This document shows positions 10,806 to 58,990 of a stretch of 64,000 nucleotides of DNA, piece by piece. Under the pieces are notes generated by a model that saw nothing but the letters and a program-made list of their open reading frames with translations, was not told where the DNA came from and made no database searches. The stretch is from NCBI GenBank assembly GCA_011742915.1, contig JAAQTN010000010.1, positions 1 through 64,000 of the forward strand, given 5' to 3'. The translations under genes and the position numbers were made by a program. This DNA comes from Billgrantia desiderata. Its GTDB lineage: Bacteria; Pseudomonadota; Gammaproteobacteria; Pseudomonadales; Halomonadaceae. Numbering within the stretch: position 1 is the stretch's first letter; the number at the start of each line of letters is the position of its first letter.

Positions 10806-11450
10806 TCAACCCAGCAAGCGCCCCAAGGCGCCATCGACATGACGCTTCCAGTCCTCTGGTGTCGTTTCCTCAAAACCCCTATCACCGACGAAGGCGCTGC
10901 CGAACACCACGTCCGGCTCGAGTTCGCGCAGCAGCCTCAGGCTCTCGGCCAGCTGTTCGCGATCCTTTTCATCGTTGTGCCCGGGAATGAAGCCGGCGTG
11001 CCAATCGCTCTTCTTGCCACGGTAGAGAGTATCCCCGGTGAACAGGTAGCGCTTGCCATGAGGCGAGTGCACCAGGAAGCAGGTGCTTCCCGGGCTGTGG
11101 CCTGGGGTGGGGATCACCTCGACATTGCCCAGATGCATCTCGCGCCGCTCGAACAGAATATCGGGCGTGCGATAGCGGGCAAACTCATCCCGCTCGGCAC
11201 GATGGCCACCCAGCTTGGCCCCGAATCGCTGGTGAATGGTCTTGAGCGTTTCCCCCAGCTCGTCCTGGTGGCTCAGGTACTGGTAGGCCACGCCGCCCAG
11301 CTCAGCCATTTTATCGATCTCATGCTGATGCCCAGTGTTGTAGAAAAGGACATTGCCCCCGTCCCGGGTCAGCAGGTAGGCGTGAACGGTCAGCCCGGGA
11401 AAGGGGCTCTCCATTTCGGTTTCCCAAATATCCGGTTGAACGCGTTGCAT
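10806..11450 (-). CDS. MBL-fold metallo-hydrolase-like protein with altered metal motif
   Basis: 214 aa. The metallo-beta-lactamase fold is clear from VIPTPGHSPGSTCFLVHSPHGKRYLFTGDTLYRG, which supplies His118 and Asp140. The usual H-x-H-x-D-H motif is reduced to LSHQDELG (His61, Asp63), so the second and fourth ligands are replaced by Asp63 and Leu65 in register or are missing. A subgroup with SH-x-DE at this position exists to my memory, function unclear. Its promoter carries a SoxR-like box, suggesting a role in handling redox-active or electrophilic compounds. It may bind one metal or none. Confidence 0.82.
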   Translation of the reverse strand: MQRVQPDIWETEMESPFPGLTVHAYLLTRDGGNVLFYNTGHQHEIDKMAELGGVAYQYLSHQDELGETLKTIHQRFGAKLGGHRAERDEFARYRTPDILFERREMHLGNVEVIPTPGHSPGSTCFLVHSPHGKRYLFTGDTLYRGKKSDWHAGFIPGHNDEKDREQLAESLRLLRELEPDVVFGSAFVGDRGFEETTPEDWKRHVDGALGRLLG

Positions 11451-11481
11451 GATTCGCTCCTTTGCGTGGTTACACAGCCGA

Positions 11482-11512
11482 AGCGTAAAACCTCAAGCAA
11501 CATTGAGGTCAA
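11482..11512 (-). promoter_or_regulatory. SoxR-type promoter of the MBL-fold gene
   Basis: Core CCTCAAGCAACATTGAGG at 11491-11508 has palindromic arms CCTCAA/TTGAGG and agrees at 14 of 18 positions with the enterobacterial soxS operator as I recall it. On the minus strand TTGACC (11512-11507) and TACGCT (11487-11482) form -35 and -10 elements separated by exactly 19 bases. That overlong spacer is the signature of MerR-family activation. The predicted start lies about 25 bases before the ATG at 11450. Confidence 0.72.
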
Positions 11513-11621
11513 GAAGAGCAATAACCACGCCGGGAGCGGTAAACTACGCTCTTGATGAAAAGCCAGGCATGCATTCCCGCACTGTGGATAAGATACGACT
11601 TGAACGGTAAGGAACTCTCGA

Positions 11622-12686
11622 ATGGTGACGCTGCTGCTGTTGGCCCTCGGCCTGGGGCTGTTGATCGTGGGTGCGGAGGGTCTGGTGCAGGGTGCGTCGC
11701 GCCTGGCGGCGCGATTGGGCATTCCGCCGCTGGTGATCGGGCTCACGGTGGTGGCTTTCGGCACCAGCGCACCGGAGCTCGTGGTCAGCCTCAAGGCCGC
11801 TCTGGACGGCCAGGCGGGCATCGCCATGGGCAACGTGGTGGGCAGCAATATCTTCAACGTGCTGTTCATTCTCGGCGTCTCGGCGTTGATCGTGCCGCTG
11901 GCGGTGGCCCAGCAGCTGATCCGCCTGGATATTCCGCTGATGATCGTGCTTTCCCTGGTGGTGCTGGTGATGACACTGGACGGCAGCGTCGGCCGGCTCG
12001 ACGGTGGGCTGCTGGTCCTTGGCCTGGTGGTCTACACCGTCTTCCTGCTTTGGCAAGGTAAACGCCAGGCGGCCAGCGACGAGCCAGCAGCCGACCACGA
12101 GGCCCTGGCCCGCCCCGGATGGCATGACGCACTCTACGTCCTCGGTGGGCTTGCCATGCTGGTGGCCGGCTCACGTCTGTTCGTCGACTCGGCCGTGACC
12201 ATGGCCGGCTGGTTCGGGGTCAGCGATCAGGTGATCGGGCTGACCCTGGTGGCGGCAGGCACTTCGCTGCCCGAGGTCGTGACCTCGATCGTTGCGGCCC
12301 TGCGCGGCCAGCGGGATATCGCCGTGGGTAACGTGGTGGGCAGCAACATCTTCAACCTGCTCGGCGTGCTGGGCATCACCGCCCTGATCGCCCCTGCCGG
12401 CATCGCCGTGACCCAGGCCATGCTCAGCCTCGACCTGCCGGTGATGGTCGCGGTAGCCGTCGCCTGTCTGCCGATCTGCTTCACCGCCAGCGCCATCGAT
12501 CGCTGGGAAGGGGCCGTGCTGCTGGGTTACTACGTGGCCTATACCGCCTATCTGGTACTGGCTGCCACCCACCACGACGCGCTGGCCGGTTTCAGTGCCC
12601 TGATGCTCTATTTCGTGCTGCCGATCACCGCTCTGACCCTGGCCGTGCTGGTCGTGCCCGAGCTGCGCCGAAGAGCGAACGAGTAG
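11622..12686 (+). CDS. yrbG: Calcium/sodium antiporter (CaCA family, YrbG-like)
   Basis: 354 aa inner-membrane protein with about ten TM helices in two inverted repeats. Each repeat contains the alpha motif: FGTSAPELVVS with following GNVVGSNIFN, and GTSLPEVVTS with a second GNVVGSNIFN. These acidic residues coordinate Ca and Na in the cation/Ca exchanger family. A central acidic loop (SDEPAADHEALA) separates the halves. AAGGA lies about eight bases before the ATG. It stands alone, divergent from the MBL gene. Confidence 0.92.
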   Translation: MVTLLLLALGLGLLIVGAEGLVQGASRLAARLGIPPLVIGLTVVAFGTSAPELVVSLKAALDGQAGIAMGNVVGSNIFNVLFILGVSALIVPLAVAQQLIRLDIPLMIVLSLVVLVMTLDGSVGRLDGGLLVLGLVVYTVFLLWQGKRQAASDEPAADHEALARPGWHDALYVLGGLAMLVAGSRLFVDSAVTMAGWFGVSDQVIGLTLVAAGTSLPEVVTSIVAALRGQRDIAVGNVVGSNIFNLLGVLGITALIAPAGIAVTQAMLSLDLPVMVAVAVACLPICFTASAIDRWEGAVLLGYYVAYTAYLVLAATHHDALAGFSALMLYFVLPITALTLAVLVVPELRRRANE

Positions 12687-58218: not shown

Positions 58219-58288
58219 GACAACTCCATCGTCAAGAATACTTAAGAAAACTTTGTATCAAGCAGGATTCGATCCAATGACAGGAAGC

Positions 58289-58319
58289 AGGCTAAAACCT
58301 AAACTTAGATTGAGGTCAA
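58289..58319 (-). promoter_or_regulatory. SoxR-type promoter of the ABC exporter
   Basis: On the minus strand TTGACC (58319-58314) and TAGCCT (58294-58289) stand exactly 19 bases apart. The core CCTAAACTTAGATTGAGG (58298-58315) matches a soxS-type operator at 14 of 18 positions. The same -10, TAGCCT, is used by the nat promoter. It lies between exporter and soxR, so SoxR could also influence its own gene. Confidence 0.75.
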
Positions 58320-58474
58320 GAGGTTCATGAAACCTTCATGGACAACACGTGAAAAAAGGGAAGCGAAAACCATACGAGCATTGTGGAAGAATGCACAATC
58401 AAACTTCCTGATCGTTTATATCAATGAAGCTGATAAATTATTTTAAAAGAAATAACTGACGAGGCACTGCGACG

Positions 58475-58990
58475 ATGAGCGACTCCACCCCCTGCGATGT
58501 TTCGAGCACACCTCTCCGAAAGCCGTCGGGTAAACGCAAGGGTACCGCGCTGCTGCATCGCGAACTCAGCGTCGGAGAGGTCGCCCGGCGCAGCGGGCTG
58601 GCAGTCTCCGCCATTCACTTCTACGAAGCCAAGGGGTTGATCAGAAGCCGACGCAACGCAGGCAACCAGCGACGCTTCTCGCGCGACGTATTGCGCCGCG
58701 TGGCAATCATCAAGGTCGCTCAGCGCACCGGTATCACCCTGGGCGAGATTCGCGCTGCCTTCGAGGCACTGCCGGAATCCCGCGCGCCGACCGCCGCCGA
58801 CTGGCAAAAGCTATCGGCGAGCTGGCGCCAGGCGCTCGACGACAGGATCGTGCGGCTCACCCAACTGCGCGACCAGCTCGACCACTGCATCGGCTGCGGC
58901 TGCCTGTCGATGGACGAGTGTCCGCTGCGCAATCCAGAAGACGAACTGGCCGAGGAGGGTGCCGGGCCGCGCCTGCTCGACCCCGCGTGA
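58475..58990 (+). CDS. soxR: Redox-sensitive transcriptional activator SoxR
   Basis: 171 aa MerR-family regulator. HTH at about 31-70 (LSVGEVARRSGLAVSAIHFYEAKGLIRSRRNAGNQRRF), dimerisation helix at about 110-137, and the [2Fe-2S] cluster motif C-I-G-C-G-C-L-S-M-D-E-C at Cys138, 141, 143 and 149. It activates target promoters when the cluster is oxidised by redox-cycling compounds. A basic N-terminal extension of about 25 residues is unusual relative to E. coli SoxR. No soxS is present, as normal outside enterics. It is divergent from the ABC exporter. Four boxes fitting its target promoter type are in this window. Confidence 0.95.
   Translation: MSDSTPCDVSSTPLRKPSGKRKGTALLHRELSVGEVARRSGLAVSAIHFYEAKGLIRSRRNAGNQRRFSRDVLRRVAIIKVAQRTGITLGEIRAAFEALPESRAPTAADWQKLSASWRQALDDRIVRLTQLRDQLDHCIGCGCLSMDECPLRNPEDELAEEGAGPRLLDPA

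What the first reader, a model, noticed from the sequence alone, without database searches (positions are those of the whole stretch)
10806..58990. A SoxR regulon of four 19-base-spacer promoters: MBL protein, SDR, arylamine acetyltransferase and ABC exporter
Seen: four promoters (11482-11512, 16957-16987, 18694-18724, 58289-58319) share a near-palindromic CCTCAA...TTGAGG core and -35/-10 elements exactly 19 bases apart; soxR with its four cluster Cys lies at 58475. Known: SoxR activates overlong 19-base-spacer promoters and outside enterics controls a few enzymes and exporters directly, responding to redox-active small molecules. Inference: these four genes form a modify-and-export module (N-acetylation, reductase-like, hydrolase-like, ABC efflux) for redox-active aromatic compounds. 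I do not know of this gene set being described as a SoxR regulon. It would be an unusual output because arylamine acetylation could silence aminated phenazine- or quinone-like toxins.
Basis: partly seen in the sequence, partly recalled or inferred. Interest (0 to 1): 0.85.

Follow-up and report, generated by a model that had tools for sequence, protein, structure and literature searches.

The report
Redox-sensor regulon with amine-acetylating enzyme
In this salt-loving bacterium four genes sit behind promoters that carry the binding sequence of the redox sensor SoxR, and the same sequence stands before an amine-acetylating enzyme in many distant bacteria, which suggests, but does not yet prove, that cells switch this enzyme and a pump on to disarm and likely expel toxic redox-active aromatic chemicals.

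Summary
Four promoters (11482-11512, 16957-16987, 18694-18724, 58289-58319) have a SoxR-type box in a 19-base spacer; soxR (58475-58990) is genuine. By this pattern they are the only ones in the 4.89-Mb genome.

Comparison supports SoxR control strongly. In 90 species of this Halomonadaceae genus all 36 genomes with SoxR carry boxes, against 3 of 54 without. All 36 arylamine N-acetyltransferase (NAT) genes of SoxR genomes have a box within 1 kb upstream (30 with no, 3 with one, 3 with two mismatches); the three NATs in SoxR-less genomes have none. Across 397 Pseudomonadota genomes 17 of 81 NATs scanned, in eight families, have one; controls gave none at that stringency.

The fixed four-gene module is only partly right: the full set recurs in 5 of 36 SoxR genomes. 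The core is ABC exporter plus NAT, often with an FMN reductase. The SDR lacks the catalytic tyrosine and the MBL-fold protein most metal ligands, so 'reductase' and 'hydrolase' are unsafe.

Best reading: a direct non-enteric SoxR regulon for processing and exporting redox-active aromatics (known kind), with NAT as an apparently undescribed, widespread output. Binding, induction and substrate are untested.

The parts
11482..11512 (-). SoxR-type promoter of the MBL-fold gene: -35 TTGACC, 19-base spacer holding box 11491-11508 (perfect core), -10 TACGCT
10806..11450 (-). MBL-fold protein, 214 aa, PF00753; motif-1 ligands degenerate (SHQDE), H118 and D140 kept
16957..16987 (+). SoxR-type promoter of the SDR gene, one mismatch in the core, -10 TACGGT
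17021..17740 (+). SDR-fold protein, 239 aa, PF00106; catalytic Tyr replaced by Phe150, Lys154 kept
18694..18724 (-). SoxR-type promoter of the NAT gene: TTTACC-19-TAGCCT
17748..18647 (-). arylamine N-acetyltransferase, 299 aa, PF00797 197.8 bits; C87, H126 and D141 invariant in the 7-sequence alignment
58289..58319 (-). SoxR-type promoter of the ABC exporter in the soxR-ABC divergent intergenic region: TTGACC-19-TAGCCT
56335..58218 (-). MsbA-like single-chain ABC exporter, 627 aa (PF00664 + PF00005)
58475..58990 (+). soxR, 171 aa, TIGR01950 over cut-off; Cys138, 141, 143, 149 for the [2Fe-2S] cluster

Best explanation
Four promoters in this Halomonadaceae genome carry SoxR boxes in 19-base spacers, and oxidised SoxR likely switches them on directly so that an arylamine N-acetyltransferase would cap toxic redox-active aromatic amines and an ABC exporter would remove them. 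Shown by sequence: boxes, spacing, an intact SoxR, an intact NAT triad, a box at every NAT found in SoxR genomes of the genus, and absence of boxes in 51 of 54 relatives without SoxR. Inferred: redox-cycling compounds oxidise the SoxR cluster; SoxR remodels the overlong spacer (established for SoxR elsewhere, not tested here); NAT N-acetylates aminophenol- or aminoquinone-type compounds so that they stop redox cycling or dimerising; the ABC protein exports parent or product. Where an FMN reductase shares the regulon or the operon, it would produce the amine or hydroquinone that NAT then traps. The SDR and MBL-fold proteins, with altered catalytic residues, may bind rather than convert a ligand.
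For: SoxR and box: 36 of 36 SoxR genomes of the genus have a box, 3 of 54 others do (Fisher 5e-22). NAT tracks SoxR: 35 of 36 against 3 of 54 (Fisher 2.5e-20). The species are related, so these are not independent points.

36 of 36 NATs in SoxR genomes have a box within 1 kb upstream; the 3 NATs in SoxR-less genomes have none (best 6 mismatches). soxR is divergent to a box-driven gene in 35 of 36. ABC promoters of the 7 SoxR-less genomes read have no box (best 6-8 mismatches).

Pseudomonadota: 17 of 81 NATs (window included) have a box within 1.6 kb at up to 2 mismatches, against 0 of 81 for the reversed pattern and 0 of 243 shuffles. The 16 non-window genomes behind them all have SoxR over cut-off, against 35 of the other 60 NAT genomes searched.

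FMN reductase and NAT stand in that order behind one box next to soxR in Chelatococcus (L264) and G352, and behind one box in 9 genus genomes. A FastTree of 161 NATs needs 13 changes of box state at the fewest.
Against: No binding, expression or enzyme data. SDR and MBL catalytic residues are degenerate, so half of the window's regulon may not be enzymes. The full four-gene set is in 5 of 36 SoxR genomes. MBL orthologues in G006 and G036 lack a box although SoxR is present; so do the ABC genes of G078 (read) and of G046, G050, G081 (by the whole-genome pattern). G078 has SoxR but no NAT. 64 of 81 Pseudomonadota NATs have no box at up to 2 mismatches, among them the clade around Kosakonia; at 3 mismatches box and reversed control are equal (2 and 2). 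G027 keeps a box at MBL without SoxR. The substrate is inferred from family knowledge only.
Confidence: 0.6

Rival explanations
1. Endogenous-metabolite reading: the regulon serves a redox-active metabolite made by the cell itself, with NAT, SDR and MBL proteins as tailoring or carrier proteins and ABC as its exporter, as for phenazines in Pseudomonas and actinorhodin in Streptomyces.
For: This is the accepted reading for P. aeruginosa and S. coelicolor (PMC4146615, abstract and passages). A marine Halomonas is reported to make aminophenoxazinones (Bitzer 2006, seen only as a citation in PMC7814019). NAT homologues act in secondary metabolism (PMC11213898, abstract start in a listing and passages).
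Against: I did not look for a biosynthetic cluster. SoxR, boxes and NAT come and go together within the genus, and the NAT-box link lies in eight families, which fits a general defence better than one product.
Confidence: 0.25
2. Ordinary oxidative-stress regulon: the boxes answer superoxide in general, as in the enteric SoxRS response.
For: The SoxR family and its promoter type are shared with enterics (box sequence in PMC4411124).
Against: PMC4146615 (passages) says that non-enterics lack soxS and that their predicted targets are not repair genes.
Confidence: 0.06
3. Another MerR-type regulator uses these boxes and SoxR presence is a by-product.
For: G033 and G043 have a box beside a weak MerR relative and no true SoxR.
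Against: soxR itself is divergent to a box in 35 of 36 genomes, and 51 of 54 genomes without it have no box.
Confidence: 0.03
4. The boxes at SDR and MBL are passengers: only NAT and ABC matter, and the other two proteins are non-functional or have unrelated roles.
For: Altered catalytic residues; boxed SDR in 11 and boxed MBL in 8 of 36 SoxR genomes.
Against: The full-length orthologues are well conserved (79-96% and 62-90% identity in the genus) and mostly keep their boxes. MBL homologues in G417 (74%) and in the distant G349 (51%) also have exact boxes.
Confidence: 0.06

Closest known systems
Six-gene SoxR regulon of Streptomyces coelicolor (PMC4146615, abstract and passages)
   Same: Direct SoxR targets without soxS: ABC transporter, flavin and other reductases, monooxygenase, epimerase; small-molecule processing and export.
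   Different: No NAT, MBL or this SDR among its six targets; response tied to the cell's own actinorhodin.
mfsA-soxR of Stenotrophomonas maltophilia (PMC4411124, abstract and passages)
   Same: Exporter gene head to head with soxR, box between -35 and -10, 19-base spacing, gel-shift proven there.
   Different: MFS pump instead of ABC exporter; single target studied.
Pseudomonas aeruginosa SoxR regulon (PA4205-PA4208, PA3718, PA2274; from PMC4146615 passages)
   Same: Exporters plus a monooxygenase; DoxX and PF03992 monooxygenase genes also sit behind boxes elsewhere in this genus.
   Different: No NAT; the P. aeruginosa NAT paper PMC1851014 has no hit for phenazine, pyocyanin or SoxR.
Streptomyces griseus NAT acting on 2-aminophenols (Suzuki 2007, seen only as cited in PMC11213898)
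   Same: Same enzyme family; shows the kind of substrate that would fit.
   Different: No SoxR control reported in what I read.

Membership tests
SoxR regulator (TIGR01950) | score over the curated cut-off | tested here: met
   227.2 bits against 116.9
SoxR regulator (TIGR01950) | CX2CXCX5C cluster cysteines | tested here: met
   C138, C141, C143, C149 align with 2zhg
SoxR regulator (TIGR01950) | redox-dependent DNA binding | not testable with these tools
   needs purified protein
SoxR-activated promoter | CCTCAA-N6-TTGAGG-like box between -35 and -10 | tested here: met
   0 or 1 mismatch in all four
SoxR-activated promoter | 19-base spacer | tested here: met
   four of four; 89 of 91 core sites abutting TTKACC in genus loci have TA at 19, but many of those loci were fetched with a pattern asking for it
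SoxR-activated promoter | conserved at orthologues where soxR is kept | tested here: met
   NAT 36/36, SDR 11/11, ABC 32/36 genomes, MBL 8/10
Direct, soxS-free non-enteric SoxR regulon | several structural genes with own boxes, none soxS | tested here: met
   absence of a soxS homologue elsewhere in the genome was not searched
Direct, soxS-free non-enteric SoxR regulon | soxR-dependent induction by redox cyclers | not testable with these tools
   no expression data
Arylamine N-acetyltransferase (PF00797) | family score and Cys-His-Asp triad | tested here: met
   197.8 bits; C87, H126, D141 invariant in 7 sequences (triad recalled)
Arylamine N-acetyltransferase (PF00797) | acetyl-CoA-dependent arylamine acetylation | not testable with these tools
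   needs enzyme assay
Classical SDR oxidoreductase | catalytic Tyr of YxxxK | tested here: not met
   Phe in 10 of 10 full-length orthologues, Lys kept (motif recalled); fold family PF00106 met
Metallo-beta-lactamase-fold hydrolase | HxHxDH metal motif and last His | tested here: not met
   SHxDE in 11 of 11 genus orthologues; H118 and D140 kept (motif recalled); PF00753 met
MsbA-like ABC exporter | membrane domain plus ATPase domain in one chain | tested here: met
   PF00664 and PF00005; 343.5 bits against the MsbA cut-off of 602, so not called MsbA

The most novel reading that the evidence does not exclude
Bacterial arylamine N-acetyltransferases, whose native role is still debated, are in good part SoxR effector enzymes: SoxR runs a bacterial phase I-II-III drug response in which an FMN reductase converts, NAT conjugates and an ABC or MFS pump exports redox-active aromatic toxins, a scheme assembled or lost many times across Pseudomonadota and perhaps also present in an actinobacterium.
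Probability: 0.35. Interest if true: 0.8.

Novelty: new variant of a known kind. Interest (0 to 1): 0.6.

Why it matters
NATs are studied for drug and carcinogen acetylation; the P. aeruginosa NAT paper (2007, passages) still speaks of a possible endogenous function, and a 2024 survey calls the secondary-metabolism role not well known (abstract start). A redox-sensor box in front of about one fifth of the Pseudomonadota NATs scanned gives a direct, testable trigger and narrows the substrate search to redox-active aromatic amines. It also widens the known output of non-enteric SoxR from pumps and redox enzymes to acetyl conjugation.

Tried and rejected
The loose core search in the window alone gives no excess, so the case rests on the tighter pattern and on comparison. 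The fifth core at 20072 and the C12:84594 site of the own genome were rejected as promoters (no -35/-10). The G022:C126 site is probably chance. Plasmid-borne NATs (198 records) were listed but not checked for boxes. Modelling the N-terminal extension of some NATs was dropped because most of its sequences came from sources not named as allowed for structure prediction.

Dropped rows: of the 89 NAT rows I scanned 81. Left out: the second piece of G209, two weak ones over cut-off (G366:C19, G322:C2; fetched, not scanned) and five below cut-off (G287, G345, G374, G249, G271:475433). The tree used 38 of the 39 genus NAT places (broken G067 left out), 80 of the 81 phylum ones (the window's counted once) and 43 of the 80 genome-contig loci (Actinobacteria thinned). 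One search scanned all 80: six have a box at up to 2 mismatches, four Halomonadaceae, Chelatococcus, and Actinoalloteichus, whose one mismatch is in the -10 and whose box ends only 6 bases before the first NAT start, so it is weak. ABC upstreams of SoxR-less genomes were read in 7 of 54; for the rest I rely on the whole-genome pattern.

Literature: one search found one paper with SoxR and NAT, (30 of 37 rows listed) two; they are papers on E. coli genomes or morphology by title and were not read. Searches (20 of 62 listed) gave no link. One search (SoxR and Halomonas, 19 of 19) showed no SoxR regulon of the genus by titles and abstract starts. Searches were read as listings. The 2008 Science survey of SoxR targets (doi 10.1126/science.1160619) is not held, so NAT may be listed there.
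Full report
1. What is there. The four promoters are at the stated places. Each has TTGACC or TTTACC, a 19-base spacer filled by a CCTCAA-N6-TTGAGG-like box, and a TANNNT -10. They end 31 (MBL), 33 (SDR), 46 (NAT) and 70 (ABC) bases before the ATG. soxR is divergent to the ABC gene; it passes NCBI's SoxR equivalog model and has all four cluster cysteines. 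NAT is a PF00797 enzyme with C87, H126, D141. The ABC gene is an MsbA-like exporter below the MsbA cut-off.

2. Chance. In the window alone the loose core search (up to 3 mismatches) shows no excess (11 against 19.6 expected). Genome-wide (4.89 Mb) the core with up to one mismatch has six places, five in this window, against one for the reversed control. The full promoter pattern TTKACCTNAAN6TTNAGGN3TA (up to one mismatch) has four, all here, spanning 46.8 kb.

3. Relatives. The genus is Billgrantia-like Halomonadaceae: contig lengths of G024 and G031 equal those of Billgrantia ethanolica and B. gudaonensis records. Of 90 genomes, 39 have the pattern; the reversed control gave one hit in all. 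True SoxR is in 36, all with boxes. The three box genomes without SoxR are G027, G033 and G043. The Fisher value is 5e-22, but the species are related, so I treat it as a description. soxR is divergent to a box-driven gene in 35 of 36.

4. Regulon content. The 109 boxed promoters in the fetched genus loci (78 without, 31 with one mismatch) lead to ABC exporter (32), NAT (24 as first gene), FMN reductase PF03358 (16), SDR (11), MBL (8, one of them in SoxR-less G027), MFS (5), HlyD-type pump protein (3), two each of PF03992 monooxygenase, DoxX and DUF2938 genes, and four single or unassigned cases (an aldo-keto reductase, another SDR, one probably chance, one without a gene found) (one or two members per cluster were typed). 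In SoxR genomes box-driven ABC is in 32 of 36, NAT in 35, FMN reductase in 16, SDR in 11, MBL in 8 (one as second gene), and all four genes of the window in 5 (G000, G023, G073, G084, G089). At E 1e-30 the FMN reductase query found 18 genomes, all of them SoxR genomes, not including the window's.

5. NAT is the striking member. All 36 NAT genes of SoxR genomes have a box within 1 kb upstream: 30 with no, 3 with one, 3 with two mismatches. Some stand directly behind it, in nine genomes an FMN reductase comes first, some have an N-terminal extension. One of the 36 (G067) is a broken copy. The 3 NATs of SoxR-less genomes have none. Beyond the genus, 397 Pseudomonadota genomes gave 81 scanned NATs (window included), of which 17 have a box within 1.6 kb at up to 2 mismatches (8, 5 and 4 at 0, 1 and 2), in families f1, f5, f9, f13, f16, f52, f63 and f77. 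The reversed pattern gave 0 of 81 and shuffles 0 of 243 at that level; at 3 mismatches both pattern and reversed control give 2. The 16 non-window genomes all have SoxR over cut-off, against 35 of the other 60 NAT genomes searched. The named collection adds Aidingimonas, Chelatococcus and, weakly, the actinobacterium Actinoalloteichus. In L264 (Chelatococcus) and L346 (G352) soxR is divergent to a box followed by an FMN reductase and NAT, with a glyoxalase-family gene first in L346. A FastTree of 161 NATs (55 boxed) needs 13 changes of box state at the fewest, so the link was probably gained or lost repeatedly. The ten NATs of family f14 and Kosakonia that cluster together are not boxed.

6. 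Natural test at the exporter. A close orthologue of the ABC gene is in most of the 90 genomes, with or without SoxR. In the seven SoxR-less genomes read (G010, G014, G027, G029, G053, G069, G077) no box stands upstream (best 6-8 mismatches). The gene is general; SoxR control comes with SoxR. Exceptions: G078 (read) and G046, G050, G081 (by the whole-genome pattern) have SoxR but no box there.

7. The two doubtful enzymes. In 10 of 10 full-length SDR orthologues the Tyr of the YxxxK motif is Phe; the Lys stays. The 11 genus MBL-fold orthologues have SHxDE where HxHxDH is expected and lack the last His, keeping H118 and D140 (motifs recalled). They may be ligand-binding proteins or use other chemistry. 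MBL homologues in G417 and in the distant G349 also stand behind exact boxes; the other six relatives found in 397 Pseudomonadota genomes do not.

8. Mechanism. Established for SoxR elsewhere: box between -35 and -10 with a 19-base spacer and direct activation, with gel-shift proof at mfsA (PMC4411124, abstract and passages). Inferred here: NAT caps amines that would otherwise redox-cycle or dimerise, and ABC exports. Leads for the substrate: S. griseus NAT acetylates 2-aminophenols (as cited in PMC11213898, passages) and a marine Halomonas makes aminophenoxazinones (as cited in PMC7814019, passages). Neither was tested.

9. Novelty. Direct non-enteric SoxR regulons of transporters and small-molecule enzymes are known (PMC4146615, abstract and passages). 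My searches of the held library show no paper that links SoxR and NAT; the two papers holding both words are about E. coli genomes or morphology by title and were not read. The Vibrio vulnificus NAT paper and the 2024 NAT survey have no occurrence of SoxR. The 2008 survey that could pre-empt this was not held. I therefore call it a new variant of a known kind.

Noticed in passing
window 20072-20089: Fifth near-core (one mismatch) overlapping the stop codon of the VOC gene and the ribosome-binding site of the DUF899 gene; no -35/-10, probably coincidence.
   Followed up: yes
window 17021-17740: SDR-fold protein with Phe in place of the catalytic Tyr, in 10 of 10 full-length orthologues.
   Followed up: partly
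window 10806-11450: MBL-fold protein with most canonical metal ligands replaced; no match among solved structures by sequence.
   Followed up: partly
L016, L017, L090, L091, L094, L264: NATs with an extra N-terminal region of about 95 residues without a Pfam match (checked for L016), some right behind an FMN reductase and a SoxR box.
   Followed up: partly
window 11482-58319 and 13 other genus genomes: Separately transcribed SoxR-box genes lie on one contig within 27-151 kb in 14 of 23 genomes with three or more boxes; in 3 they are spread over 0.6-3.8 Mb and in 6 they lie on several contigs.
   Followed up: partly
L024 (G033) and L029 (G043): SoxR-like boxes between a DUF2938 gene and a MerR-family gene that scores far below the SoxR cut-off; another regulator may use this box.
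   Followed up: no
L315, L316, L328, L334, L336, L338, L341, L342, L346: Small glyoxalase-family (PF00903) proteins are the first gene behind exact SoxR boxes in several distant Pseudomonadota; six of the nine were typed (L315, L328, L336, L338, L341, L346), the rest by eye.
   Followed up: partly
L022 (G027): A one-mismatch box at the MBL orthologue in a genome without SoxR, possibly a relic.
   Followed up: no
L190 (G067): NAT gene broken into two pieces behind an intact box.
   Followed up: no
window 18810-21552: ArsR regulator, AHSA1, VOC, DUF899 and amino acid racemase genes in one direction, divergent from NAT.
   Followed up: no
window 50080-54575: RND pump and HlyD-type adaptor between the regulon genes, without a SoxR box.
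   Followed up: no
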